A stretch of 64,000 nt of DNA from Methanomicrobiales archaeon (lineage in GTDB: Archaea; Halobacteriota; Methanomicrobia; Methanomicrobiales; Methanospirillaceae). Under the pieces are notes generated by a model that saw only the letters and a program-made list of their open reading frames with translations, was not told the origin of the DNA and searched no databases. Shown one piece after another: positions 5,759 to 63,850 of this stretch (the first letter of the stretch is position 1; each line of letters begins with the position of its first letter). The DNA lies in the NCBI GenBank assembly GCA_025358115.1, contig JANYKQ010000038.1:30509-94508 (forward strand), read 5' to 3'. The position numbers and the translations under genes were made by a program.

Positions 5759-5903
5759 GGCTCTGTTGAAATCCTCTAAAAATGGGGGGGGTCAAGGGGA
5801 TGCTCCCCTTGGGTTGCCTCCCCCTCTGGGGGAGAGATGGGGTCCCCCTCCAAATGGCCTATAAGAGAAAGCGAATCACCGGAAATAGGATTTCAACAGT
5901 GGC
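5759..5903 (+). repeat. Family A MITE-like element, copy 1
   Basis: 145 bp bounded by GGCTCTGTTGAAATCCT on the left and AGGATTTCAACAGTGGC on the right. It is flanked by CTCTCTTC (5751-5758) and CTCTTTTC (5904-5911), an 8-bp direct repeat with one mismatch. The interior has two strong hairpins, AAGGGGATGCTCCCCTT and CTCCCCCTCTGGGGGAG. It carries no gene. The right flank abuts the 3' end of the next gene. Confidence 0.85.
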
Positions 5904-7146: not shown

Positions 7147-7285
7147 GGCTCTGTTAAAATCCTATAATCAGTGATTCGCTTTCTCTTATAGGCCATTTGG
7201 AAGGTGACACCCTCTCTCCCCCAGAGGGGGAGGCAAACCAAGGGGAGCATCCCCTTGACCCATCTTCTTTTTGAGAATTTTCCCA
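7147..7285 (-). repeat. Family A MITE-like element, copy 2, inverted
   Basis: Reverse orientation relative to copy 1. GGCTCTGTTAAAATCCT is intact on one side and the internal CTCTCCCCCAGAGGGGGAGG and AAGGGGAGCATCCCCTT hairpins are conserved, but the other end has decayed to GAGAATTTTCCC. The flanking AAATTTTT could match an AGATTTTT beyond the decayed end, but this is weak in AT-rich sequence. Confidence 0.75.
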
Positions 7286-7343
7286 TGAAAAACAGATTTT
7301 TCGTTCAGTTTAATTAAAGGGTCCCCGCTCAAAATACCAACAG

Positions 7344-7524
7344 GATTGTGCCGCCGCCCCCAACGGGGCTTCCTGTGCGGCGGTTCAAGGACTAAAATAC
7401 TTCCCCGTAAACAGATTTGCCCTGCGAGGCCCCGCCGAGGCGGCTGAGCGACCCCAAAAAGGGGGTGGGAAGATTCCTGAGGTCCATAAGTAGGGGTATC
7501 AGATTTTCATGCTTTGGGTCCGAA
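7344..7524 (+). repeat. Family B repeat, copy 1
   Basis: About 180 bp resembling 38662-38848. Shared blocks include GCCGCCCCC, CAGATTTGCCC/CGATTTGCCC, GAGGCCCCG and GGGGGTGGGAAGA, and both copies end in an ATTTTCAT...GGGT(C/A)CGAA tail. Several GC-rich hairpins are possible. No gene is evident; short ORFs across it differ between copies. It lies between the HEAT gene and the MutY-like gene, in a 660-bp gap that otherwise holds only A/T-rich sequence and MITE copy 2. Confidence 0.65.
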
Positions 7525-7717
7525 CACTTTGTTCATGTGCATTTCAACAGAGCAAAAATTTTAGTTTTTAAAACACAAAAAAATGCCGGGATTTTTTTTG
7601 TTTCAACTGTTTTCCATCAATTCAAAATGAATAAGCAATGTGAATAATCACCGTGATCTTTACAATTCCAAGCCGGATAATGAATTCACTCCTTTTTTAG
7701 TTCCGGATTTTCGGGTG

Positions 7718-16246: not shown

Positions 16247-16624
16247 AAAAACAGTGCTGCCCAAATGCACATTGACTGGAGTTCACCCCCTTGCAATGAA
16301 AATGCATTTATGTTTTCCCCTGCCTCCTGGCCACCTTTTTAACCCCGGCTGGGTTAAAAAAAGTCAGATTTTTTTGTCATTAATCGCCACGGGGGCATGC
16401 TCACAGGATAAAAAGAATATCAGGAAAAATGATTTTTTTTTAGAATAAAAAATGGCTCTTTTAAAACCCTCTGAAATGAGGGGGGGTCGGGAGGATGCGC
16501 CCTTTGGGATGCCTCCCCCTCTGGGGGAGAGAGGGGGTCACTCTCCCAATAGTCGATAAGGGGAAGCGAATCATAGGAAAAAGGGATTATCCAGCACAAA
16601 AAATAAAAAAAAGATGGGTAAATA
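16247..16624. other. Intergenic stretch with MITE copy 3 and a hairpin terminator
   Basis: Apart from the family A element it holds AACCCCGGCTGGGTTAAAAAAAG just after the DUF255 gene, a short stem with an A/T tail that may end transcription. No credible ORF was seen. Confidence 0.4.
16454..16596 (+). repeat. Family A MITE-like element, copy 3
   Basis: Same orientation as copy 1. The ends have diverged (GGCTCTTTTAAAACCCT and AGGGATTATCCAGCAC), but the GCCTCCCCCTCTGGGGGAGAGAGGGGGTCAC-type core is well kept. The flanks are too A-rich to judge a target duplication. Confidence 0.75.
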
Positions 16625-18619: not shown

Positions 18620-19933
18620 TCAGGATGCATAAGGATATCTCAGGAGAATGGGCCGGGCCTCTTTATCCGGCAGCCGGGATTGAATCAGGGTGCAGATCTC
18701 GTCTAATCCCACCGGTACGTAACCAACAACTTCTGCACTCACGTTGATCCGGCGATCAACAAAATTGATAAATGGAAAATGATGGAGGTCGTTATTATGG
18801 TGATGGCCGTGAACCGTCCAGCCGGTAAAACCCGGAGGTATATCTGCTGGATTATGCACAAGAAGGAAGTGTAATCCTTTGTAATCCAGTATCAAAGACG
18901 GTATGGCTCCCAGTTCGTTATTGTCATGATTGCCCCGGATGAAGGTGATCTCCCCGCCCAGTTGTTTCCGGTATTTTTCCAGACCCTGCGCATGTCTCCC
19001 ATACCGCAGGTCCCCGAGATAAAAAACCCTGCTCCTGGGGGAGATCACGTTGTTCCAGTTATCAATAAGAACACGATCCATCTCAGCAACATCGGAAAAG
19101 AGGAACGGCCGGGAACAATACCGGATGATATTGGCATGGCCAAGGTGCAGGTCCGAGATGAGGAATATATCTCCTTCCCTATCCCGCCGGGAAGAAGTAA
19201 GCTCAAAACCCATTTTTTTGCGATACCGGGAAAGACTGTTCTGCCAGGACAGGGACGTGTGCCGTGATCCTGCAGGGATCCAGCATTTGTCCAGGAGATC
19301 ATATTCTGCAAGAATATCTTCTCCTTTCATCACCGTGATCCGGATGCCGTGCTCATCGAGGGTGACCGGCCAGATGACCTGCCGGTTCCTGAGTTGCAGT
19401 TTCTTTATCAGCCATTTCAGGGGCCGTGAAAAATACCCGTCAAGCGACCGGTCAATCCGGGGCAGTGTTTCTTTTGATTTTGTTATAATGGAAAAAATTT
19501 CTTCTGCAAGAGCAGGTTCGAGCCGGTTGGCGATGGTAACGTGGAACCATTTTTTTCCGGGAAAAGCATCCCAGGGATTATAACTGGAGGTTATCGGTGT
19601 CAGTACCTCGGAAATGGACACGGTGAGACTTTTAAGTGCGTCCGATGGCTGGACAAAAAAGGCGATCACGCTTCCGTGCATACCGTCCCGTTTCTCCCAG
19701 CCGTCGATCATGAACGGGATCGGATCGTACCGGGATGCGGCCCTGCTGACAGCATCCAGGAACTGCTCCTCACTGACATCCCCATTGAGGCTCAAAGGCC
19801 CGAAAAGGGTGACATGCGGATGTTTTTCAGTATAGTTCCCCAGCCGGAATTTTTTGGCAATGGCAGAGATCGTCTCGTTCATCCGCCATTTTGTCTTTCC
19901 AAGGCGGATCTCGATGAGAAAAATATCTTCCAT
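18620..19933 (-). CDS. Fusion of 2H phosphoesterase and calcineurin-like phosphoesterase
   Basis: 437 residues from ATG 19933 (GGGATG upstream); ATG 19942 is the alternative. Residues 1-170 look like the 2H/2'-5' RNA ligase family, with two HxT motifs, HVTLFGPL and HVTIANRL, about 100 residues apart. Residues 230-430 are a calcineurin-like phosphatase with SDLHLGHANI, LGDLRYGRH, IRGNHDN, LVHNP and VHGHHHN, complete for two-metal catalysis. Between them is a linker of about 60 residues. Both halves of such a protein act on RNA ends or cyclic phosphates in relatives, so RNA end processing is a reasonable guess. Confidence 0.85.
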   Translation of the reverse strand: MEDIFLIEIRLGKTKWRMNETISAIAKKFRLGNYTEKHPHVTLFGPLSLNGDVSEEQFLDAVSRAASRYDPIPFMIDGWEKRDGMHGSVIAFFVQPSDALKSLTVSISEVLTPITSSYNPWDAFPGKKWFHVTIANRLEPALAEEIFSIITKSKETLPRIDRSLDGYFSRPLKWLIKKLQLRNRQVIWPVTLDEHGIRITVMKGEDILAEYDLLDKCWIPAGSRHTSLSWQNSLSRYRKKMGFELTSSRRDREGDIFLISDLHLGHANIIRYCSRPFLFSDVAEMDRVLIDNWNNVISPRSRVFYLGDLRYGRHAQGLEKYRKQLGGEITFIRGNHDNNELGAIPSLILDYKGLHFLLVHNPADIPPGFTGWTVHGHHHNNDLHHFPFINFVDRRINVSAEVVGYVPVGLDEICTLIQSRLPDKEARPILLRYPYAS

Positions 19934-20531
19934 GCAGTTCATCCCGTAAGATAATTTCTATTAGCCTTCCTTGGGGTTAAATCTTTGACCTGTAAATATC
20001 CCAGGAAGGGAAAAAATTTCTGATAATTTGGCTCTGTAGAAATTATCGGTTTTTATCATAGGCCGATATTGGGGGCGACGGCAATCTGATACCTCCTTCC
20101 CGCCACTCGGGAATTCCCCATACTGGGATAGGATCCACAGTGGGTTAGTGATAATTCCGCTAAAAAGGGGGTCAAGGGGATGCACCCCATGGGTTGCCTC
20201 CCCCTTTGGGGGAGAGAGGGGGTCACACTCATAATAACTAAAAGAATATAACCGAATTGTTGAAAAAAATAGGATTTCTACCGAGCAGATCTTCTCATTA
20301 AAAAAGAGCATGATCCAAAAAAGGTAATGTAAATAATTTTCTCTGACTGCAGAGAACCGTGGCCGTGCGGGTTTATTCATTGTCCGGAGCCCTCAGGGAA
20401 AAGACGGGAGTAAAAAAAGCAAAAATGCTGGAATATCCCTGGCAGATTCCAAAGGGAAGAGTTTTTTACCGTGCCATAGTATTATGCATCATCACTAAAA
20501 AATAAGTACAGAATTAAAAACGGAAACCTGT
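19934..20531. other. Intergenic stretch with an enlarged MITE copy
   Basis: Holds family A copy 4 and about 240 bp of A/T-rich sequence before the next gene. An ORF on the minus strand (track 19961-20380) follows the repeat and is not credible as a gene. A promoter for the gene at 20532 probably lies in the A/T-rich ATTATGCATCATCACTAAAAAATAAG area. Confidence 0.4.
20030..20286 (+). repeat. Family A MITE-like element, copy 4, enlarged
   Basis: Ends GGCTCTGTAGAAATTAT and AGGATTTCTACCGAGC, with the conserved AAGGGGATGCACCCCATGG and CTCCCCCTTTGGGGGAG hairpins. The left arm carries about 110 bp not present in the other copies (around 20050-20160), a possible nested insertion. No matching flank duplication. 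Confidence 0.7.
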
Positions 20532-22704: not shown

Positions 22705-25107
22705 TCATTTGAGCCCCTTTATCACCATTAAGGTGATATCATCGAACTGGGGCACATCCCCGGTGAACTGTTGCACTGCTTCAAGAATTTTACCCAGGAT
22801 ATCCTGGGAGGACATATGGGCATTTTGCCGTAAGACTGCATACAGTCTCTCTTCGCCAAACATCTCTTCCCGGGTATTGATCGATTCGGTGATGCCATCG
22901 GTGTACATGACAATGACATCATCCGGCCCGATATCCACGGTACGGGAATAAAATTCCCGGTGCTCGACAGCCCCCAGGATAATTCCCGTTGGCAGGAGTT
23001 CTTCCAGGCTGCCATCCCTGCTCCTGAATACCACCGGGGGGTTATGACCCGCGTTCACGTAGGTCAGGGTCCGGTTCTTCTCAGAAAGTGTCCCGTAAAA
23101 GAGCGTGACGAACATGCCGGCCTTGGAGTCCTGTGCAATGACATTGTTAGCATCATAAATTGCCCGGGCCGGATCGCGGTGCCAGAGGGCATTCACCCGG
23201 ACCACGATCCGGGATAATGCCATAAACAGTGCAGCCGGCACACCTTTTCCCGATACGTCCGCTATGAGAATTCCCAGGGTTCCTTTCTCAAGCGGGATTA
23301 TCTCAAACGGGATCACATCGAAAAAATCCCCTCCCACTTCTTTTGCCATCACACTTTTTGCCGCAATGTCAAAACCGGAGATCTGGGGGAGGATTTCGGG
23401 AAGAAAGCTCTGCTGGATCTCGGCAGCAATCTGGAGTTCGGCGTTCGAACGGGCAAGGCGCCCTTCCATCTCCCGGCGTTCGGTAATATCCCGGATCGTT
23501 TCAATTGCCCCGGTGATATTGCCCTGGGGATCATAGAGCGGGCTTGCTTTTGCCCAGAAGTACCGTCCCGAGATTCCCAGTTTCGGGATAAATGTATCGA
23601 CAACCAGTGTATCGCCTTCCCGTTTTATATGGGTATAGCGGCTCTCCACCTCTGCCTCGGGCATGAGAATGAGGTTTGCAAGCATGGGTTTCTTCTCGCC
23701 ATAAAACGGGAGGGCATACTCATAATCCCCTTTCCCAACCATGGCCTGTGCAGGTACGCCGGTCAGTTCTTCCATGGCCCGGTTCCACGTGATAACAATC
23801 CCGTCCCGGCTGATGACAAACGTAGCATCCGGTAAAAAACTGATGATCTCTTCGAGACTCCGGCGGGACCGGGTGATCTCCTGTTCAGCCCGTTTCCGGT
23901 CAGAGATATCGCGTATCGTCTCGATTGCACCGGAAATATTTCCCTGGGGATCATAGAGAGGACTTGCCTTTGCCCAGAAGTAAGTTCCTCCATTACCGAA
24001 AGTGGGTATGAAAATATCTACAACCAGCGTATCGCCGATCTTTTCCACGGTATCGTACCGCTTCTCAATCTCGACTTCCGGCATGAATATGAGATTTGCG
24101 AGCATCGGTTTTCTCTCGCCATAAAACGGGAGGGAATACTCATAATCCCCTTTCCCGAGTATGGCTGTGGCGGATACTCCCGTCAGTACTTCCATGGCCC
24201 GGTTCCACGTTATGACAATGCCGTCACGGTTGATGACAAATGTGGGATCCGGCAAAAAACTGATGATCTCTTCAAGACTCCGGTGGGACCGGGTGATCTC
24301 CTGTTCAGAGCGTTTCCGGTCCGTGATATCCCGGATTGTCTGTATAGCGCCGGAAATATTCCCGTGAGGATCATAGAGGGGACTTGCCTTTGCCCAGAAG
24401 TAAGTTCCCCCGTTACCGAATGTGGGTATGAAAATATCTACAACCAGCGTGTCACCTATTTTTTCGATATTGTCGTACCGCTTCTCAATCTCGACTTCCG
24501 GCATGAATATGAGATTTGCGAGCATCGGTTTTCTCTCGCCATAAAACGGGAGGGAATATTCATAATTCCCTTTTCCAAGTATGGAGCTGGCTGATACCCC
24601 GGTCAGTATTTCCATTGCACGGTTCCATGCAATCAGCTTCCCCTCAAGATCGATAACAAACGTGGCATCCGGCAAAAAATCAATGATCTCTGCCATCCTC
24701 CGGTTGGTCCGTTCCTGTTCCTGTTCAGCCCGTTTCCGGTCCGTGATGTCGCGGATTGTCTCAATTGCTCCGGAGATATTTCCCTGGGGGTCATAGAGAG
24801 GACTTGCCTTTGCCCAGAAGTAAGTTCCCCCGTTACCGAACGTGGGTATGAAAATATCTACAACCAGCGTATCGCCGATCTTTTCTACAGTATCATACCG
24901 CTTCTCAATCTCGACTTCCGGCATGAAGATGAGATTTGCGAGCATAGGCTTTCTCTCGCTGTAAAAAGGAAGGGCATATTCATAGTTCCCTTTACTGAGC
25001 ATGGCTGTCGCGGCTACCCCGGTCAGTTCTTCCATTGCCCGGTTCCAGGCTATCACCCGCCCTTCCAGATCGATCACAAACGTGGCGTCAGGCAAAAAAT
25101 CAATGAT
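22705..25107. repeat. Tandem 420-bp repeats encoding PAS domains (first three units nearly identical)
   Basis: Within the sensor gene, units of 420 bp repeat in tandem at roughly 25107-24688, 24687-24268, 24267-23848 and 23847-23470. DNA identity is high between units 1 to 3 (for example ATGAGATTTGCGAGCAT recurs), which argues for recent duplication or gene conversion. Assembly collapse or copy-number change here is possible. The remaining bases to 22705 encode the phosphatase and are not repeated. Confidence 0.8.
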
Positions 25108-25140
25108 ATCTCCATGAAATGTCCCTTCCCGCGAACCCAT
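22705..25140 (-). CDS. Four-PAS sensor with C-terminal SpoIIE/RsbU-type PP2C phosphatase
   Basis: 811 residues from ATG 25140, which has AAGGAG eight bases upstream; the track start at 25224 has none. Four PAS-PAC units of 140 residues each (starting near 12, 152, 292, 432) are followed by a linker and a PP2C-type phosphatase (AEIQQSFLPE, EVGGDFFDV, ADVSGKGVPAALFMA, VNAGHNPP, MYTDGITES). This build senses ligands or redox state and dephosphorylates an anti-sigma-type partner in bacteria; the archaeal target is unknown. The first three units are nearly identical (FMPEVEIEKRYD, FGNGGTYFWAKASPLYDP), and the fourth is more diverged. Confidence 0.9.
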   Translation of the reverse strand: MGSREGTFHGDIIDFLPDATFVIDLEGRVIAWNRAMEELTGVAATAMLSKGNYEYALPFYSERKPMLANLIFMPEVEIEKRYDTVEKIGDTLVVDIFIPTFGNGGTYFWAKASPLYDPQGNISGAIETIRDITDRKRAEQEQERTNRRMAEIIDFLPDATFVIDLEGKLIAWNRAMEILTGVSASSILGKGNYEYSLPFYGERKPMLANLIFMPEVEIEKRYDNIEKIGDTLVVDIFIPTFGNGGTYFWAKASPLYDPHGNISGAIQTIRDITDRKRSEQEITRSHRSLEEIISFLPDPTFVINRDGIVITWNRAMEVLTGVSATAILGKGDYEYSLPFYGERKPMLANLIFMPEVEIEKRYDTVEKIGDTLVVDIFIPTFGNGGTYFWAKASPLYDPQGNISGAIETIRDISDRKRAEQEITRSRRSLEEIISFLPDATFVISRDGIVITWNRAMEELTGVPAQAMVGKGDYEYALPFYGEKKPMLANLILMPEAEVESRYTHIKREGDTLVVDTFIPKLGISGRYFWAKASPLYDPQGNITGAIETIRDITERREMEGRLARSNAELQIAAEIQQSFLPEILPQISGFDIAAKSVMAKEVGGDFFDVIPFEIIPLEKGTLGILIADVSGKGVPAALFMALSRIVVRVNALWHRDPARAIYDANNVIAQDSKAGMFVTLFYGTLSEKNRTLTYVNAGHNPPVVFRSRDGSLEELLPTGIILGAVEHREFYSRTVDIGPDDVIVMYTDGITESINTREEMFGEERLYAVLRQNAHMSSQDILGKILEAVQQFTGDVPQFDDITLMVIKGLK

Positions 25141-25370
25141 AATCCTGCTCCTTATGCTAGAATAGACCGTTATCGGGTATGAATTTTCTTCTTTTTTTCT
25201 CCTGAAAGGTAGTATTCTGATCATACGGAGAAAAAATGAATTGCGTGTTATTTGCGGCTATCCGGAAAAGGGGTTCTCAGTATGATCCTTAATTATCAGG
25301 ATTTTTTACCGGGAAATCCCCCATGACTGAACCTTAATATAGGCACCCGGCCAATCATTTTTCACTTCGC

Positions 25371-26039: not shown

Positions 26040-26508
26040 GGGTCTTTTTTGTTGTGAAAGAGTTATCGGTGAACTGAATGAATTGCTCCACATTTTTTAC
26101 ATAAGATCTATGCAGAATAAAAAAATGATCTGAAGGACCCGTCATGAACGCGAGTTCATATAAGGTTCATGAATCCCGTGAATGTGATCTCCTTTTGCCT
26201 TCGGGCCTCTTTGGGGCATGGCGGGCAGGGACGTTTAATTTTTTAAGGTTCTGATGTTCTGTTGAAATCTTTTTACCGGTGATTCGCTTTTTCTTATTGG
26301 CTGTTTGGAGGGTGACCCCCACTCTCCTCCGGAGGGGGAGGCCGTCCAAGGGGTGCATCCCCTTGACCCCCCCTTTTTTAGAGAGTTTCAACAGAGCCGG
26401 TTCAGGTAGAATCATTGAGCGAAACAGGATGTAATGAGGGTAAATCTTCGAGTGCGGGAATCTTGTTCTGGCAGGTTTTTCGCAGACCAAACCCCCCGGT
26501 AAAAAAAA
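26040..26508. other. Intergenic stretch with MITE copy 5
   Basis: Convergent gap between dedA and the mptG-like gene. Besides the repeat it holds GTTCATATAAGGTTCATGAATCC, which looks like a leftover inverted pair of TTCAT words. No ORF is convincing; the track ORF at 26167 crosses the repeat. Confidence 0.35.
26255..26398 (-). repeat. Family A MITE-like element, copy 5, inverted
   Basis: Ends TGTTCTGTTGAAATCT and GAGTTTCAACAGAGCC. Flanks GGTTCTGA (26247-26254) and GGTTCAGG (26399-26406) match at six of eight positions, consistent with an aged 8-bp target duplication. Core hairpins are present. Confidence 0.8.
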
Positions 26509-36177: not shown

Positions 36178-36873
36178 ATGCTTGACGTGACCGGCCTCAA
36201 TGTCTTTCATGGAAACCTGCAGGTTGTCTGGGATTTAGGCTTCCATGTTGGCAAGGGTGAACTGGTGACCCTGATAGGCCCGAACGGGGCCGGCAAGACA
36301 ACAACGGTCGAGACCATCATCGGTCTCAACCGGAAGGCCTCGGGTTCTGTCCTCTTCGAAGGAGAGGAGATCCTCGGGAGTCACCCTTACGCTCTCTTCC
36401 GGAAAGGACTTGCGCTCGTGCCGGAGAAACGCGAGATCTTCCCGAAGATGCCGGTAGCCGAGAACCTGCTCCTCGGGGGAATCGGGCAGGACGGGACGGA
36501 AAAAACCCTTGCTCACATCTACTCGCTCTTTCCGATCCTCAAAGAACGGGAACACCAGCAGGCCGGCACCTTAAGTGGTGGTGAGCAGCAGATGCTTGCG
36601 ATTGGACGGGCCCTCATGTCAAAGCCCCGGCTTCTCATCCTGGATGAACCCTCGACCGGGCTCTCCCCCCTTCTCGTGGGCCAGGTATTCCGGTCCCTTG
36701 AACAGCTGGGCCGGGAAGGGATGACGATTCTCCTGCTCGAGCAGAATGTCCGGCATGCCCTTGACATGTGTCACCGGGGATATGTACTGGAGAACGGGCG
36801 GATCATCAAAGAGGGCAAGGCAAAGGAACTCAAGCGCGACCCGCATATCCAGAAGGTATATCTCGGGTTCTAG
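36178..36873 (+). CDS. livF: ABC transporter ATPase LivF
   Basis: 231 residues: GPNGAGKTTTVETIIGL (Walker A), LSGGEQQMLAIGRAL (a complete signature), LLILDEPSTGLSP (Walker B) and LLLEQNVRHAL (H-loop region). It follows livG after 12 bases in the same transcript. LivF pairs with LivG under the LivH/LivM channel, whose genes lie 2-4 kb away on the opposite strand and converge on this pair. Confidence 0.93.
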   Translation: MLDVTGLNVFHGNLQVVWDLGFHVGKGELVTLIGPNGAGKTTTVETIIGLNRKASGSVLFEGEEILGSHPYALFRKGLALVPEKREIFPKMPVAENLLLGGIGQDGTEKTLAHIYSLFPILKEREHQQAGTLSGGEQQMLAIGRALMSKPRLLILDEPSTGLSPLLVGQVFRSLEQLGREGMTILLLEQNVRHALDMCHRGYVLENGRIIKEGKAKELKRDPHIQKVYLGF

Positions 36874-36904
36874 AGAAAGATCTGCAATTTTTTTATGATT
36901 ACAG

Positions 36905-37049
36905 GGCTCTGTTGAAATCCTCTAAAAAGAGGGGGGGTCAAGGGGATGCTCCCCTTGGGTTGCCTCCCCCTCTGGGGGAGAGAGGGGGTCACCCTCCAAA
37001 TGGCCTATAAGAGAAAACGAATCACCGGAAATAGGATTTCAACAGAGCC
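36905..37049 (+). repeat. Family A MITE-like element, copy 6, best preserved
   Basis: 145 bp with perfect 17-bp terminal inverted repeats, GGCTCTGTTGAAATCCT and AGGATTTCAACAGAGCC. Flanks GATTACAG (36897-36904) and GATAACAG (37050-37057) are an 8-bp direct repeat with one mismatch. The core has both G/C hairpins. It fills most of the 320-bp convergent gap between livF and livK1; it could also act as a bidirectional terminator. Confidence 0.9.
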
Positions 37050-37196
37050 GATAACAGAGCATTTTGGTGAATGCAGATTTCCTTGAAATCTCCGGTTATT
37101 ATAAGCATATTTTTCAGACTGGTATTTCCCTGGTTCATAAAAGTTCGAAGCAGTCTCGTCCAGACCAGACTGCCGGTAAAAAAAGATATTCGGGTT

Positions 37197-38528
37197 TTAT
37201 ACACTGCCGGCTGTATACCCCATTGGCAGGGTAAATTCTGTTGTCCTGAGGTTGTCCGGCCAGACAATGAACGGCCGTGTCTCACCAAGGGTCTGGTTGA
37301 ACGCGAGCTGCTCCATCCAGAGGTCGAAGGTTGATTCCCGGTAGTCCGGGGAGAACGAGATGGTCTGGTCCTTCATCGGCACAATAACCTGGGGCATTTT
37401 CAGGTCTACGAGTGCCTGCCGGACCGTGGCTTTATCCGTGCTTCCTGCATTGCCGACAGCTTTTGCCGCAATGAAGACTCCCTCGTAGGTTGAAGCGCCC
37501 ATCATGTCCGGGTAGGTGCCAAACCGGGTGAAGTACGCCTGCTTCATGGCACCCTGGGCATCGGATACTGCACCCACCGGTGCCGTGTAGGGAGAGAACA
37601 TGCTCTCGATGATGGCCCCTTCGCCATATTGCCCGAGATCCTTGTAGAACTGGGCATTGTCATTGTTCACTACGTTGAGGAAGATCGTGTTGAGGCCAAT
37701 ATCCCTGCGGGCCTGCGTGATGATGGGTGCTCCCTCGTTCGGGAATGCCGCGATATAGACTGCGTCAGGGTTTGCTCCCTTGATAGAGGTCAGCGGAGTC
37801 CGGAAGTCGGTCTCGCCCATCCGGAAACTCTGCTGGGAGACGAGCTGGATATTGAGCTTCTCCTGCGTGATGGTGTTTATGACCGCTGTCTGCACGCCTT
37901 TGCCAAATGCGGTGTCCTGGTACAGGAGTGCGAGCCGGAGCGGCCGATCCGCAGAAAAACCGGACTTCTTTGCTATGGCCGGACGGAGGACCTGGTCGAT
38001 GAATTTTATGGTATACTGGGCATAGGCATCCGTTGTCGGGCAGTGGTGGAAGATATAACTGGTATCAATGTCCGTGCGGTGGGTGATGACGGGACTCGAT
38101 GCACCGGTAACGATATAGGGCACCTTGTACTCCGCGATGGTCTGCTCGTATGCCGAGGTTACCGCGCTTGAGTACCCGCCGACAAGGAGATCCACCTTGT
38201 CATCGGTTATCAGCCGGGTTGCAGCTTTCTGGCCGCCCGCCTGGGTGGACTCATCATCAGCAACTATCATCTTGATCTGTGCCTTCGATCCGTCTTTCAG
38301 GGTCACGCCGCCAGCGGCATTGATCTTATCCGCGGCAACCTGTGCCGACTGCCACATGTTCGTTCCGACATTGCTTGCAGGCCCGGTCAGCGATGCAATA
38401 ACGCCAATCTTGATTACACCGGTGGATCCTGGGGTTGTCTGTGCTTGCGTGGCTGCCGGCTGGGTACACCCGGTGACAAGTGCGGCCATGACAAGCAGTG
38501 CCGCGATAAAGAGAACCTGGTATTTCAT
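37197..38528 (-). CDS. livK: ABC transporter substrate-binding lipoprotein, LivK-type, copy 1
   Basis: 443 residues. A signal peptide ends in a lipobox-like LVTGC, so the protein is likely membrane-anchored outside the cell. KIGVIASLTGPASNVGTN begins the periplasmic binding fold used for branched-chain amino acids, amides and urea, and VGGYSSAVT and GASSPVITH line the hinge. It is about 85 percent identical by eye to the copy at 40857, the main difference being scattered substitutions and the C-terminus. Ligand unknown. Confidence 0.92.
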   Translation of the reverse strand: MKYQVLFIAALLVMAALVTGCTQPAATQAQTTPGSTGVIKIGVIASLTGPASNVGTNMWQSAQVAADKINAAGGVTLKDGSKAQIKMIVADDESTQAGGQKAATRLITDDKVDLLVGGYSSAVTSAYEQTIAEYKVPYIVTGASSPVITHRTDIDTSYIFHHCPTTDAYAQYTIKFIDQVLRPAIAKKSGFSADRPLRLALLYQDTAFGKGVQTAVINTITQEKLNIQLVSQQSFRMGETDFRTPLTSIKGANPDAVYIAAFPNEGAPIITQARRDIGLNTIFLNVVNNDNAQFYKDLGQYGEGAIIESMFSPYTAPVGAVSDAQGAMKQAYFTRFGTYPDMMGASTYEGVFIAAKAVGNAGSTDKATVRQALVDLKMPQVIVPMKDQTISFSPDYRESTFDLWMEQLAFNQTLGETRPFIVWPDNLRTTEFTLPMGYTAGSV

Positions 38529-40856: not shown

Positions 40857-42188
40857 TTATGCGCTTCCTGCGGTATACCATGCGGGCAGGATAAAGTCTG
40901 TTGTCTTTAAATTGTCCGGCCAGACAATCGCGGGCCGTGTCTCCCCGGCAGTGGCATTCATCGCAAGCTGCTCCATCCAGAGATCAAAGTTCGATTCCCG
41001 ATAGTCCGGTGAGAATGAGATGGTCTGGTCCTTCATTGCCTCGATCACCTGGGGCATCTTCAGGTCAACCAGCGCCTGCCTGACCGTTGTCTTGTCAGTG
41101 GTTCCTGCATTTCCGATCGCTTTTGCAGCAATGAACACACCCTCGTAGGTTGATGCACCCATCATGTCGGGATAGGTGCCGAATTTAGCGAAATATGCCT
41201 GCTTGAATGCACCCTGGGCATCGGCTACTGCGCCGGCCGGGGCGGTGTAGGGTGAGAACCTGCTCTCGATGATGGCTCCTTCCCCGTACTGGCCAAGGTC
41301 CTTGTAGAACTGGGCATTGTCATTATTCTCCACATTGAGGAAGAGCGTGTTGAGGCCGATGTCCCTGCGGGCCTGCGTGATGATGGGGGCGCCTTCATTC
41401 GGGAAGGCTGCGATATAGACCGCGTCGGGTGTGGCAGCCTTGATTGCGGTCAGCTGGGTCCGGAAATCGCTCTCCCCCATCTTGAAACTCTGCTGGGAGA
41501 CGAGCTGGATATTGAGCTTGTTCTTGGTGATGGTGTTGTTCACTGCGGTCTGCACGCCTTTGCCAAATGCCGTATCCTGGTACAGGAGAGCAAGGCGGAG
41601 CGGGCGGTCAGCGGAATACCCGTACTTTTTTGCGAGTGCCGTGCGGACAACCTGGTCGATAAAACTCGTGGTGTACTGGCCATAGGTATCGGTGGTCGGG
41701 CAGTGGTGGAAGATATAACTGGTATCAATGTCCGTGCGGTGGGTGATGACAGGGCTCGATGCACCGGTGACGATATAGGGCACTTTGTATTCGGCAATGG
41801 TCTGCTCGTACGCAGAGGTAACTGCGCTTGAGTACCCGCCAACAAGGATATCCACCTTGTCATCGGTGATCAGCTTGGTGGCTGCTTTCTGGCCGCCCGC
41901 CTGGGTGGACTCATCGTCGCCGACAATCAGCCTGACCTGGGCCTTCGACCCGTCCTTTAAGGTCACCCCGCCAGCGGCATTGATCTTGTCGGCAGCAACC
42001 TGCGCCGACTGCCACATGTTCGTGCCGACATTGCTTGCCGGGCCGGTCAGTGATGCAATAACCCCGATCTTGATGACGCCCGGTGATGCCGGTGTTGTCT
42101 GCGCCTGCGTTGCTGCCGGCTGGGTACAGCCGGCGAAGAGTGCGGCCATGACAAGCAGGACCGCTATAAAGAGAACCTGGTATTTCAT
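40857..42188 (-). CDS. livK: ABC transporter substrate-binding lipoprotein, LivK-type, copy 2
   Basis: 443 residues, with the signal peptide and lipobox-like LFAGC. It is closely related to the copy at 37197 across its length, including the hinge and ligand-pocket segments. The copies differ in charged surface positions (for example PTTDTYGQYTTSF against PTTDAYAQYTIKF) and near the C-terminus, so they may bind related ligands with different affinity. It heads the livK2-livH-livM transcript. Confidence 0.92.
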   Translation of the reverse strand: MKYQVLFIAVLLVMAALFAGCTQPAATQAQTTPASPGVIKIGVIASLTGPASNVGTNMWQSAQVAADKINAAGGVTLKDGSKAQVRLIVGDDESTQAGGQKAATKLITDDKVDILVGGYSSAVTSAYEQTIAEYKVPYIVTGASSPVITHRTDIDTSYIFHHCPTTDTYGQYTTSFIDQVVRTALAKKYGYSADRPLRLALLYQDTAFGKGVQTAVNNTITKNKLNIQLVSQQSFKMGESDFRTQLTAIKAATPDAVYIAAFPNEGAPIITQARRDIGLNTLFLNVENNDNAQFYKDLGQYGEGAIIESRFSPYTAPAGAVADAQGAFKQAYFAKFGTYPDMMGASTYEGVFIAAKAIGNAGTTDKTTVRQALVDLKMPQVIEAMKDQTISFSPDYRESNFDLWMEQLAMNATAGETRPAIVWPDNLKTTDFILPAWYTAGSA

Positions 42189-45839: not shown

Positions 45840-46190
45840 GAAACACCAGCATTTATTTTTATTGCCAAAGAGGCCCCTTGCTGATGAGATCTGTGTATTG
45901 CCTTCCTAATACAATTTCTGATATATTTCTCATCTTTTTTGACAGATACAGGGCTTATGTTTTTTTGTTGTCAACTTCGTCTTTCACGAGGGAGTAACTC
46001 ACATTTTCCGGGACCCCGGGATAATTAAAAAAGCATGGGAAAACGCACCCTGGCCATCTTCGTTTTTCCGGAAAAAAGCCAGATTTTTTTTAAGCTGGTG
46101 CTCCTGCCTGGAAGCCTTTGAAGAAAATACATACTGATAACCGATATCCGGCAGATTAAAAAAAAGAGAAAAAATTATCCGTTAATGCAC
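45840..46190. other. Intergenic stretch without a supported gene
   Basis: 350 bp between the GIY-YIG gene and the first zinc-protein gene. ORFs here are short and have codon use unlike genes. It probably holds the promoter of the GIY-YIG gene (TATATTTC near 45930). Confidence 0.35.
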
Positions 46191-46370
46191 TCAGAAGCGG
46201 GGCTTCCGGTGTTTCGGGAGGCAGTCTCTGCAGTAGACGGGCCTTCCCTCAGTTGGCTTGAACGGTACTTCGCATTCTTTTCCACAGTCTGAACAGACTA
46301 CTTTTGTCATTTCACGGGGACCAAAGTCACGGGGACCCTGGTTGCCGCCAAAATTTGATGATCCATACAT
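46191..46370 (-). CDS. 59-residue CxxC zinc protein, copy 1
   Basis: Not in the ORF track. ATG 46370 to TGA 46191 encodes a Gly/Arg-rich start (FGGNQGPRDFGPRE), then VVCSDCGKECEVPFKP and RPVYCRDCLPKHRKPRF. The VCxxCGxExxVPFxP...RPVYCxxC pattern is a zinc-binding module found alone or attached to RNA-binding proteins in archaea, so nucleic acid binding is likely. Copy 2 lies 700 bp away and differs at only four residues. Confidence 0.8.
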   Translation of the reverse strand: MYGSSNFGGNQGPRDFGPREMTKVVCSDCGKECEVPFKPTEGRPVYCRDCLPKHRKPRF

Positions 46371-46892
46371 GATAAATTACTCAAACAGTCTGATTATAAA
46401 CTGTAAATTTATATTTGATGCCGGGGTATAAGAGTGTCTGTATTGGGAGTGGCAGAAAATCCGCATTATCCCGCAATAATGGGCACCGGTGTAGTTTTTT
46501 CCGTGTTTTGGAAGGGTATTTTAAAAAAACGCGCACGGATTTTGGAGTTTTTACACCATCCAGCAGGTCCGTCCTGGTGGTGTACCTCAGAAAATTTTCC
46601 TGCCGGTGACCGGTTCCGGTTTTTACCTGGCATTCATTTCCTGGGACCCGGCATTTTTAAATTCTTCAGTTTTCCCGTCTGGGAACATGCGCAGGCTCGC
46701 GGAAAGGGCAGCTTTCCGATTATACTGCAGGACAAAAAAGATGACAACCCGTAAACCTGTAACCGGTAATTTTTTGGACCGGCAAATCCCCAAAATCGAT
46801 ATACCCGGTTTTTAAGCCCATGCAGATCGCTATGCAGGATTAAACAGAGGAAACAAACTAAAAAAAGAGAAAAAATTTTTCCGTTAATACAC
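46371..46892. other. Gap between the duplicated zinc-protein genes
   Basis: 522 bp. The first 75 or so bases repeat the upstream region of copy 2 (ACTCAAACAGTCTGATTATAAACTGT is shared), and the last 35 repeat the downstream flank. The middle has no credible ORF; track ORFs here have unusual composition and no ribosome site. Confidence 0.4.
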
Positions 46893-47072
46893 TCAGAAGC
46901 GGGGCTTCCGGTGTTTCGGGAGGCAGTCTCTGCAGAAGACGGGCCTTCCCTCAGTTGGTTTAAACGGTACTTCGCATTCTTTTCCGCAGTCTGAACAGAC
47001 TACTTTTGTCATTTCACGGGGACCGAAGTCTCGGGGACCGCGGCTGCCGCCAAAATTTGATGATCCGAACAT
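46893..47072 (-). CDS. 59-residue CxxC zinc protein, copy 2
   Basis: Not in the ORF track. ATG 47072 to TGA 46893; same architecture as copy 1 with substitutions near the N-terminus (MFGSSNFGGSRGPR) and V-F-C for V-Y-C. The nucleotide identity extends into both flanks, which indicates that the promoter and 3' end were duplicated as a unit. Confidence 0.8.
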   Translation of the reverse strand: MFGSSNFGGSRGPRDFGPREMTKVVCSDCGKECEVPFKPTEGRPVFCRDCLPKHRKPRF

Positions 47073-47679
47073 GATAATTACTCAAACAGTCTGATTATAA
47101 ACTGTGCTACTATAAATGTGGCCTGAGTATAAGAGGTTCTGTATTGAACCACAGGTTTAGCGGAACAAATCCATGAAAAATGATGGTTTTTGTCCCAGCT
47201 GCCAGGTCCCCTTGTATAATCCGGTCCAGGCATACCGTATGCCGGGTCCCTGTATGCATGGTTTTACGGCACAATGTGTCCCGTGCGCGGGTGCACCGGA
47301 AACCGGTTCCAGATTTTTTTTAGAAATTTCCGGTTTTTCCCGGTACTCTTTTTTAAAGCCATCCGGGCATCACGGGTGTAGTGAGCGGGGTTAACAAAAT
47401 ATCCGGGTACGACGGAGGTCCGGATGGTTCCCTTTGGGCTGCCACCCCCGGGGGGAAAGAGGGGTAACACACCATCGGTCCGGAACTCATGACCATCAGT
47501 TACCGGAAATTCCAGGGTTTTTTACCGGGCAAATCTTTTCTGCCCGAAACTCCGGAAGATGCCGGTGCAGGGGAAGGAATTGTTTCAGATAAGCGTGTTT
47601 TCCCGGGAACAAGTGTCGGGGATCCGGTATGCGCAGGCACCGGCTCGCTGCAACAAAAAATTTCCGGTGAAAAAGAGTA
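47073..47679. other. Intergenic stretch with a weak family A core
   Basis: 607 bp. Around 47395-47475, GGTTCCCTTTGGGCTGCC and CCCCCGGGGGGAAAGAGGGG look like a decayed MITE core without ends. An ORF at 47173 starts with MKNDGFCPSCQVP, which resembles a zinc ribbon start, but lacks a ribosome site and the rest has no family features; it may be a remnant. Confidence 0.35.
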
Positions 47680-59022: not shown

Positions 59023-59030
59023 TTTTTTTT

Positions 59031-59092
59031 GCTCTGTTGAAATCCCGGTTCCGGTGATTCACTTTCATTCATTGGCTGCCGGGAAGTGGAGA
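59031..59092 (-). repeat. Family A element, copy 7, partial
   Basis: GCTCTGTTGAAATCCCGG followed by CCGGTGATTCACTTTC and ATTGGCTG matches one arm of the element; the hairpin core and other end are missing. A truncated relic. Confidence 0.65.
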
Positions 59093-61388: not shown

Positions 61389-61775
61389 GTCAGCTATATC
61401 TGGACGGTGATTGGGTATGAATTTTATTTATTTTACCATGCCGCTTCCGGGTCCGGGATATCATGACAGCGCTGCCGGTGGCAAGGAAGGCACCCGGGAT
61501 CGTGATATGACTGAAATGAACAGATTCCCATTCTCTTTGAGAAAACAGCGGAAAATCCGTTGTATTTTTACTCCGGGAACAATCAAGATCGTACAATTTA
61601 AGGAAAGACTCAGCGGGGCATGGCGCAGGTCCGGGTTTTCTCTAAATTTCCGCGTGTCGGGAACTGTTTTTCATAAAAAAAGATAGCTAAAAACCTGTCA
61701 CGGAACGGATTCCAGGTACCCCCCATAAAGATTTTCCATCAGTATTATGCTCCGGGGAGGATCATAGAATAGAAG
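61389..61775. other. Divergent gap with TBP1 leader
   Basis: 387 bp between the HIT and TBP1 genes. No ORF is credible. Its last part contains the conserved ATAAAG and AGTATTATG block listed below. Confidence 0.35.
61725..61749 (+). promoter_or_regulatory. Conserved TBP promoter block, copy 1
   Basis: ATAAAG and AGTATTATG are spaced 16 bases start to start and lie 35 bases (from AGTATTATG) before the ATG. The same words with the same spacing precede the second TBP gene, while neighbouring bases differ, so they are probably constrained. Confidence 0.6.
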
Positions 61776-62330
61776 ATGGCTGAAAACAAGTACGAATCAT
61801 TGAAAATTGAGAACATCGTTGCTTCCGGAGCCATTGCCGAGACCATTGATCTCGTAGAGCTCTCATCCAAGGTTCCCAACTGCGAACTCAACAAGAAGCG
61901 GTTTCCCGGTGCAGTCTATCGTATCGCCGATCCCAAGATTGCTGCCCTCATATTTTCATCGGGAAAGGTTGTGCTCACCGGCATGCGAAACCGTGAGGCC
62001 CTTACAAAGGGACTTGCCGTCATCACCAAATCTTTGAATGACGCGGGTATTGTAACGCTCAAAGAGCCCAAGGTTGCGATCACCAACATGGTCTGTTCAT
62101 ATGATCTTGGCAAATACATCAATCTCAACAAGATCGTAGTCACGCTCAATGTGGAAAATATCGAGTACGAACCCGAGCAGTTCCCCGGCCTTGTATACCG
62201 GATCAAGGATCCCAAGATAGTTGTCCTCATCTTCTCTTCCGGAAAGATCATCCTGACGGGCGGCAGAAATCTTGAAGATATCCGGAAAGGTCTTGGTGTG
62301 CTTGAACAGAAACTCTCAAGCATTATGTAA
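61776..62330 (+). CDS. tbp: TATA-box-binding protein, copy 1
   Basis: 184 residues, two direct repeats of about 90 residues (LSSKVPNCELNKKRFPGAVYRI...FSSGKVVLTG and NLNKIVVTLNVENIEYEPEQFPGLVYRI...FSSGKIILTG), the saddle fold that binds and bends TATA boxes. Essential in archaeal transcription with TFB. It is followed 380 bp later by a close paralog. Composition is typical for the window. Confidence 0.96.
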   Translation: MAENKYESLKIENIVASGAIAETIDLVELSSKVPNCELNKKRFPGAVYRIADPKIAALIFSSGKVVLTGMRNREALTKGLAVITKSLNDAGIVTLKEPKVAITNMVCSYDLGKYINLNKIVVTLNVENIEYEPEQFPGLVYRIKDPKIVVLIFSSGKIILTGGRNLEDIRKGLGVLEQKLSSIM

Positions 62331-62709
62331 GAGATTTTTTGTTTATTTTCAGGTAAAAAAAACAATCTTCTTTTTCTTTGCTGTCATTCTTCCGGGTTTT
62401 ACCAGGGAAAACCAACTCTCTTCCACTCTGCCGTCATGCAATGGATTATTCCGGTTTTTTTTAAGACTCTGTCGCGACCCCACTGCTTCCCCACCGGGGC
62501 TGTTTAGGTGGAAACCGGGGTAAAAATCCCGGTCGTTTTTATGAATTCTCCCGCGGCCCGGTATCAGGTAACAGATCAGACACTGCTGGTGCATGCGAAT
62601 CATTTTTGTTTATATAAAGAAAAACGGGGGTACCGGAATGCAAAAAAATTTACCTATAATAAAGCTTGTCCGTTAGTATTATGATCAAGTGAGAATCATT
62701 CTAGAGCAG
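62331..62709. other. Gap between the TBP genes
   Basis: 379 bp. T-rich runs right after TBP1 (TTTTTTGTTTATTTTC) likely end its transcript; the right end carries the conserved promoter block of TBP2. No ORF. Confidence 0.4.
62659..62683 (+). promoter_or_regulatory. Conserved TBP promoter block, copy 2
   Basis: Same ATAAAG and AGTATTATG words as at 61725, at the same distance from each other and from the ATG at 62710. Here TATAATAA overlaps the ATAAAG word and fits a TATA box. The shared spacing to the start suggests a regulatory signal common to both genes. Confidence 0.6.
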
Positions 62710-63264
62710 ATGGCTGACAAAAAGTACGAATCATTGAAGATTGAGAATATCGTTGCATCCGGTGTTATTGCAGAATCCATTGATCTTGTTGAACTCTCCA
62801 GTAAGGTCAAGAACTGCGAACTCAATAAGAAACGATTCCCCGGTGCAGTCTATCGTATCGAGGATCCCAAGATCGCATCCCTGATCTTCTCATCCGGCAA
62901 GATCGTGCTCACGGGCATCCGCAACAACAAGGCACTCGTGGACGGGCTTGCAATCATCATCAAGTCATTGAATGATGCCGGCATTGCAACCCTCAAGGAA
63001 CCCAAGGTTGCGATCACCAACATGGTCTGCTCGTACGATCTCGGCAAGTACATCAACCTCAACAAGATCGTAGTTACGCTCAATGTTGAGAACATCGAGT
63101 ACGAACCCGAGCAGTTCCCCGGTCTCGTTTACCGGATCAAGGATCCCAAGATCGTAGTCCTCATCTTCTCGTCGGGAAAGATCATCCTCACGGGCGGCAG
63201 GAACTTAGAAGACATCCGCAAGGGTCTTGGCGTTCTCGAACAAAAACTTGAAAGCATAATGTAA
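62710..63264 (+). CDS. tbp: TATA-box-binding protein, copy 2
   Basis: 184 residues from ATG 62710, chosen to match the paralog; the track start at 62689 adds seven residues with no support. It is nearly identical to copy 1 in the second repeat, with most changes in the first (SIDLVELSSKVKNCELN, DPKIASLIFSSGKIVLTGIRNNKALVDGL). Having two TBPs suggests a specialised or condition-specific one. Confidence 0.95.
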   Translation: MADKKYESLKIENIVASGVIAESIDLVELSSKVKNCELNKKRFPGAVYRIEDPKIASLIFSSGKIVLTGIRNNKALVDGLAIIIKSLNDAGIATLKEPKVAITNMVCSYDLGKYINLNKIVVTLNVENIEYEPEQFPGLVYRIKDPKIVVLIFSSGKIILTGGRNLEDIRKGLGVLEQKLESIM

Positions 63265-63850
63265 ATCAGGAAAATCTTTTTTTGGCTTTTTAAAAAAAAG
63301 CTGCAATCATTTTTATTGGATTATTTTTTACCGGGTGGTTACCGTTGGACCGGCCGGATCCGGGATATTTCGTTAAGGGTTGTTGCGGGAGAGTATCGCT
63401 GGAATGCAGGAGAACTGATGTTGAACGGGCCGGGATAATTACTCCGGTAATGAGGAATAAATCCTGGAATCGCAGTTTTTCTTGATGATTTTTCCGGGTA
63501 TTTTCCAGAATCGCTTCGGTTGAAAGTCATATTTCGCGACTCGATTTTCTCTTTAGATAACCGGGAGTATGACCCCCTCTCTCCCCCAGAGGGAGGTTAT
63601 CCCAAGGGGTGCACCCCCCCTGACTCCCGGGTTTATCGGGAGGTTTTCATGAACACGCGGAAGGATTTAGTATATATTCCCAATGGGACATTTGTATTTC
63701 ACTCCGGGTTTTCAACAGACTTCCTGAAATCATCACCGTCCCGGATTACCCGAATGAAAAAAATGTTGCCGTATAATACCCACGGTTCCATTCCCTGCAA
63801 CCGTTATTCAGGACATGGAAAAAGAGGAAAAAAAGTTCAGCGATTCCCGT
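63265..63850. other. Gap with a T-rich terminator and an inverted family A core
   Basis: 586 bp between TBP2 and purQ. TTTTTTTGGCTTTTTAAAAA at 63275 follows TBP2 as a likely terminator. Track ORFs here overlap the repeat or have no ribosome site. Confidence 0.4.
63535..63640 (-). repeat. Family A element, copy 8, core only
   Basis: CCCCCTCTCTCCCCCAGAGGGAGG and CCCAAGGGGTGCACCCCCCCTGAC match the inverted core of the element, but the 17-bp ends are lost. A decayed copy. Confidence 0.6.

What the first reader, a model, noticed from the sequence alone, without database searches (positions are those of the whole stretch)
5759..5903. Dispersed family A repeat is an IS6-like MITE with 8-bp target duplications
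At least six fuller copies (5759, 7147, 16454, 20030, 26255, 36905) and two or three relics share 17-bp ends GGCTCTGTTGAAATCCT and an internal pair of G/C hairpins. Copy 6 has perfect ends and flanks GATTACAG/GATAACAG; copy 1 has CTCTCTTC/CTCTTTTC; copy 5 has GGTTCTGA/GGTTCAGG. The ends resemble IS6-family ends (GGxxCTGTTGCAAA) and the 8-bp duplication matches that family. No transposase lies here, so it should be mobilised in trans. The conserved interior hairpins suggest a selected RNA or terminator function as well.
Basis: partly seen in the sequence, partly recalled or inferred. Interest (0 to 1): 0.7.

Follow-up and report, generated by a model that had tools for sequence, protein, structure and literature searches.

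The report
IS5-powered mini-transposons with conserved hairpin core
The repeats are small, gene-less jumping elements of the methane-making archaeon Methanoregula; their ends and 8-base footprints match IS5-family transposons (not IS6 as first guessed), and inside most of them sits a hairpin-rich core of unknown purpose that was found only in this genus and a close relative.

Summary
The window holds six main copies plus relics of a dispersed element with 17-bp inverted ends (12 end matches against 0.16 expected by chance); the genome holds about 34 hits. Two "copies" are larger than stated: 7147-7554 (408 bp) and 20030-20287 (258 bp) are composite. The 8-bp target duplication is confirmed: of 89 elements bounded by these ends in Methanoregula and relatives, 27 have a perfect 8-bp duplication (0.34 expected), against one each for 7 or 9 bp. 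The IS6 assignment is wrong: IS6 transposase is absent from this genome and from 35 of 39 genus genomes, and the few hits lack these ends. IS5-family elements of about 1 kb in Methanoregula carry the same ends and 8-bp duplication. The own 70%-complete assembly has no transposase copy. So this is a MITE family most likely mobilised in trans by an IS5-family transposase, a kind already known in archaea. The unusual part is a 64-bp, three-hairpin core shared across elements with different ends, sizes and modules, found only in Methanoregula and one neighbouring genus. RNA selection on it is not shown: almost no compensatory changes, and G-U changes (51) exceed A-C (35) only modestly. Its loops do vary five times more than its stems.

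The parts
5759..5903 (+). MITE copy 1, 145 bp, TIRs GGCTCTGTTGAAATCCT / GCCACTGTTGAAATCCT; flanks CTCTCTTC/CTCTTTTC
7147..7554 (-). composite element, 408 bp: hairpin core (reverse) fused to a second G/C-rich module, both TIRs present; AT-rich flanks 7/8
16454..16584 (+). MITE copy with decayed right end
20030..20287 (+). 258-bp element with TAGAAA-type ends and an extra left module before the core
26255..26398 (-). MITE copy, 144 bp; flanks GGTTCTGA/GGTTCAGG
36905..37049 (+). best-preserved MITE copy, 145 bp, perfect 17-bp TIRs; flanks GATTACAG/GATAACAG; between convergent genes
   Evidence: absent behind the same gene in 19 congeners
36897..36904 (.). left copy of the 8-bp target duplication of the 36905 element
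37050..37057 (.). right copy of the 8-bp target duplication of the 36905 element
36933..36996 (+). 64-bp core with hairpins H1 AAGGGGatgcTCCCCTT, H2 CTCCCCCtctGGGGGAG, H3 GAGGGggtcaCCCTC
59030..59075 (+). relic: one TIR and sub-terminal arm
63516..63628 (-). relic with decayed core

Best explanation
A family of MITEs (non-autonomous DNA transposons of about 95-400 bp) of the archaeal genus Methanoregula. They share 15-17-bp ends with ~1-kb IS5-family insertion sequences of the same genus. They are most likely moved in trans by that IS5-type DDE transposase, which binds the ends and inserts the element with an 8-bp target duplication, mainly between genes and in A/T-rich sites. Shown: matching ends, matching 8-bp duplications, transposase family, occupied and unoccupied sites, near-identical copies. 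Inferred: that this transposase moves them, and that the source IS was lost from or missed in this assembly. The conserved hairpin core is part of the MITE, not of the IS; its role is open. My best guess (about 0.3) is that it makes insertions harmless to neighbouring genes, for example by stopping read-through in both directions.
For: 12 ends in the window vs 0.16 expected. 34 hits in the genome. 27 of 89 end-bounded elements have perfect 8-bp duplications vs 0.34 expected; 7 and 9 bp give 1 each. IS elements of 941-1013 bp with the same ends whose transposase scores 190 bits on NF033579 (cut-off 140) and hits DDE_Tnp_1. Several of these have perfect 8-bp duplications: L170, L172, L173, L181, L191, L194. 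Transposase clades match end types: proteins 71-94% identical to the L145 type carry TTGAAA ends, those about 41-51% identical mostly TAGAAA ends; the MITEs have the same two end classes. Left/right asymmetry of the TTGAAA-type IS (GAAACCCT left, GAAATCCT right) recurs in many MITEs of relatives. Element missing behind the orthologous gene in 19 congeners. Near-identical copies with different flanks at contig ends point to recent movement.
Against: No IS5-type transposase in the own assembly (70% complete) or in several congeners that hold the elements, such as G005, G014, G017 and G034. MITE and IS share little beyond the ends. The closest TTGAAA-type transposase (G021) is frameshifted. Window copies have only 5-7 of 8 matching flank bases. 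No transposition was observed.
Confidence: 0.9

Rival explanations
1. IS6-family MITE.
Against: PF13610 is absent from the own genome and from all genomes with many full copies; the few genus hits lie on about 340-410-aa proteins without these ends. An IS5 partner has the ends.
Confidence: 0.02
2. The hairpin core is itself a mobile or exchangeable cassette that entered IS5-type MITEs of several lineages; the MITE is only its vehicle.
For: Core 90-98% alike across the genus while arms do not align. It occurs with both end classes and with different neighbouring modules. Core-less copies join at one GGGGGTCA repeat. In G028 and G033 further hairpins sit between H1 and H2.
Against: 86 of 107 cores have at least one element end within 300 bp (control 2 of 214), mostly at two or three preferred distances. 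Core-less copies are also explained by deletion between the 8-bp direct repeats.
Confidence: 0.12
3. The core is kept by selection as an RNA element or bidirectional terminator used by host genes.
For: Loops vary 24%, stems 4.7%. Sites lie between genes, convergent 24 vs divergent 7, p=0.003. G-U cells 51 against A-C 35 in the stems, a slight lean to the core-forward strand.
Against: 8 compensatory cells in about 1,200; the G-U excess is modest; unpaired spacer nearly as conserved as stems. Both orientations relative to neighbours (tandem 10 vs 13). Site occupancy differs between species. No Rfam match. Convergent bias is also expected from selection against promoter damage.
Confidence: 0.2

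Closest known systems
Archaeal MITEs with IS5 partners (Methanosarcina and Methanococcoides, listed by Kamoun et al. 2013, PMC3852290)
   Same: Short non-coding elements (140-252 bp) sharing mainly the inverted ends with an IS5 element
   Different: No hairpin core is mentioned in the passages read; DRs there are listed as 0 or 3 bp for the IS5 cases; other genera
IS5 family, NCBIfam NF033579 transpos_IS5_2; nearest annotated relative found: Methanomethylovorans hollandica pMETHO01 IS5 transposase WP_015313961.1
   Same: 49% identical transposase; its element ends GGCTCTGTAGAAA match
   Different: About 1-kb autonomous element; no hairpin core
IS6 family
   Different: Different transposase; not found with these elements
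BOX elements of Streptococcus pneumoniae (modular MITEs; modularity from memory, mentioned in PMC10969869)
   Same: Intergenic MITE built of exchangeable hairpin modules
   Different: Bacterial; unrelated sequence
GC clusters / double-hairpin elements of mitochondria (PMC4478555)
   Same: G/C-rich hairpins, intergenic, changes concentrated in loops
   Different: No IS5-type ends or 8-bp duplication

Membership tests
MITE | short, no transposase gene, multi-copy | tested here: met
   94-408 bp, about 34 hits in the genome, no IS5-, IS6- or IS1595-type transposase found in the own genome
MITE | terminal inverted repeats and target-site duplications | tested here: met
MITE | autonomous partner with the same ends | tested here: met
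   IS5-family elements in congeners; none in the own incomplete assembly
MITE | movement demonstrated | not testable with these tools
   only indirect: site absent behind the orthologous gene in 19 congeners, near-identical copies
IS5-family-driven | partner transposase is IS5 family | tested here: met
   NF033579 190 bits vs cut-off 140; PF01609
IS5-family-driven, ISH1 subgroup | subgroup assignment in ISfinder | not testable with these tools
   8-bp duplication fits ISH1 (from memory) but no ISfinder search was available
IS6-driven | IS6 transposase with these ends | tested here: not met
REP/BIME with Y1 transposase | no TIR-type target duplication; palindrome is the mobile unit | tested here: not met
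   TIRs and 8-bp duplication bound the elements; Y1 transposase itself was not searched for
known RNA family | Rfam match | tested here: not met
   no match in the window at gathering threshold
selected RNA structure | compensatory base changes | tested here: not met
   8 compensatory cells of about 1,200

The most novel reading that the evidence does not exclude
A hairpin cassette largely restricted to Methanoregula is exchanged between IS5-type MITE lineages with different ends and kept because it does something in the cell, for example insulating neighbouring genes from read-through or raising the element's own transposition.
Probability: 0.2. Interest if true: 0.6.

Novelty: new member of a known kind. 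Interest (0 to 1): 0.35.

Why it matters
It corrects the family assignment, ties a widespread uncatalogued repeat of environmental methanogens to a concrete transposase, and shows a modular MITE system in which one hairpin core outlives changes of ends and arms. It also explains some contig breaks in these metagenome assemblies. If the core proves functional, it would be a testable case of a mobile insulator or terminator in archaea.

Tried and rejected
IS6 (PF13610) and IS1595 (PF12762) transposases: present in a few congeners, not linked to these ends. Independent mobility of the core: weakened by the TIRs found around it. RNAalifold on the core alignment was spoiled by variable loop length, so pairs were counted by hand-set columns. 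A first check of the orthologous site used the wrong orientation for minus-strand loci and was redone. Viral contigs hold no exact core. Literature searches for Methanoregula MITEs in the held library gave nothing specific. Conservation of H2/H3 in loci L195-L229 is biased because that pattern was used to find them; they were left out (pair counts and stem/loop test).

Full report
Setting. The window is bases 30509-94508 of contig C84 of a 2.26-Mb, 97-contig, 70%-complete assembly. An exact core pattern finds only Methanoregula and Methanomicrobiales MAGs among named genomes, so the host is a Methanoregula-like methanogen.

Observation. The end motif occurs 12 times in the window against 0.16 expected. 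Copies at 5759, 26255 and 36905 are 144-145 bp with two ends. The 7147 copy extends to 7554 (408 bp) and the 20030 copy to 20287 (258 bp); both are composites with extra G/C-rich modules. The 16454 copy has lost its right end. Genome-wide there are 34 hits: about 16 full or nearly full copies, the others mostly core only. Several contigs end within nearly identical copies. C36/C27 (GAATTATC/GAATTCTC) and C46/C77 (AATTTTTT on both sides) look like single copies split by the assembler (inference).

Target duplication. Over 89 end-bounded elements from all fetched loci, 27 have a perfect 8-bp duplication (0.34 expected from mismatched pairs), against one each at 7 and 9 bp. Clear cases are G014 (TCCTGCGG, TAAATAAT, GATTATTG), G006 (ATTATTTC) and G005 (CATATTTG, GACATTAA, GCAAATTG).

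Partner. IS6-type transposase (PF13610) is absent from this genome and from 35 of 39 genus genomes, and where present lacks these ends. IS1595 is also excluded as the source. A search for the ends in four relatives gave a 988-bp pair in G021 enclosing a frameshifted DDE transposase. It matches IS5-family model NF033579 and DDE_Tnp_1. Its relatives are in 25 of 39 genus genomes, and most fetched copies lie inside 941-1013-bp elements with the same ends, several with perfect 8-bp duplications. An intact one (L173, 317 aa) scores 190 bits on NF033579, cut-off 140. The nearest annotated relative found is in Methanomethylovorans hollandica, 49% identical, with the same end type. Elements with transposases 71-94% identical to the G021 type have TTGAAA ends; those about 41-51% identical mostly have TAGAAA ends; MITEs show both classes. 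The own genome has no copy, so the source IS is lost or lies in the missing 30%.

Evidence of movement. Behind the gene that precedes the 36905 copy, 19 congeners have no element. In G021 the IS itself sits behind the gene that precedes window copy 5759.

Hairpin core. A 64-bp block (three hairpins) is 90-98% alike across the genus while the arms do not align. In a phylum sample of 394 genomes it appears only in this genus and in one genome of a neighbouring genus. Of 107 cores, 86 have at least one element end within 300 bp, 58 both, against 2 control hits in 214 flanks. It occurs in elements of different sizes and with other hairpin modules. Core-less copies join at a GGGGGTCA direct repeat, which suggests deletion. 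Structure test on 63 cores not selected by pattern: 8 compensatory cells out of about 1,200. G-U against A-C cells are 27:20 (H1), 9:8 (H2) and 15:7 (H3), 51:35 in all, a slight lean towards the core-forward strand that, without compensatory changes, does not amount to proof of RNA selection. Loops change in 24% of cells, stems in 4.7%, other unpaired positions in 6.8%. So stem and spacer sequence is constrained, but an RNA fold is not proven. Cores lie mostly between genes, 24 convergent to 7 divergent (p=0.003), with no orientation preference; gene calls there were simple ORF calls and that count includes the pattern-selected loci (18 to 5 without them).

Known context. Kamoun et al. 2013 (PMC3852290) list archaeal MITEs with IS5 partners that share mainly the inverted repeats, so the kind is known. 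I found no description of this family in the held papers, which are only part of the literature.

Verdict. New member of a known kind; IS6 is corrected to IS5; the core's role stays open.

Noticed in passing
window 23477-25195: Four 420-bp tandem repeats (60-83% alike) inside the 839-aa ORF 22705-25224 (minus strand).
   Followed up: no
window 61725-63264: Two adjacent paralogous ORFs with internal repeats (FPG.VYRI.DPKI..LIFSSGK..LTG), which look like duplicated TATA-binding proteins.
   Followed up: no
window 37196-38528 and 40857-42188: Two paralogous 443-aa ORFs on the minus strand, 79% identical over 300 bp, near an ABC transporter ATPase gene (36178-36873).
   Followed up: no
window 46152-47146: Direct repeats of 224 bp (91%) and 71 bp (82%) about 700 bp apart.
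   Followed up: no
L158 and L159 (G014:C40:2920-3015 and 19688-19783): A separate 96-bp MITE without the core, same ends, perfect 8-bp duplications, in opposite orientations.
   Followed up: partly
L083 and L084 (G028, G033): Extra hairpins inserted between core hairpins H1 and H2, hinting at exchange of hairpin modules.
   Followed up: no
L010, L014, L150, L199, L201: A third end type, GAAACGCACATGA, on larger (357-701 bp) composite elements.
   Followed up: partly
G029: Eleven intact IS5 copies with nearly equal scores in one genome, suggesting recent activity.
   Followed up: no
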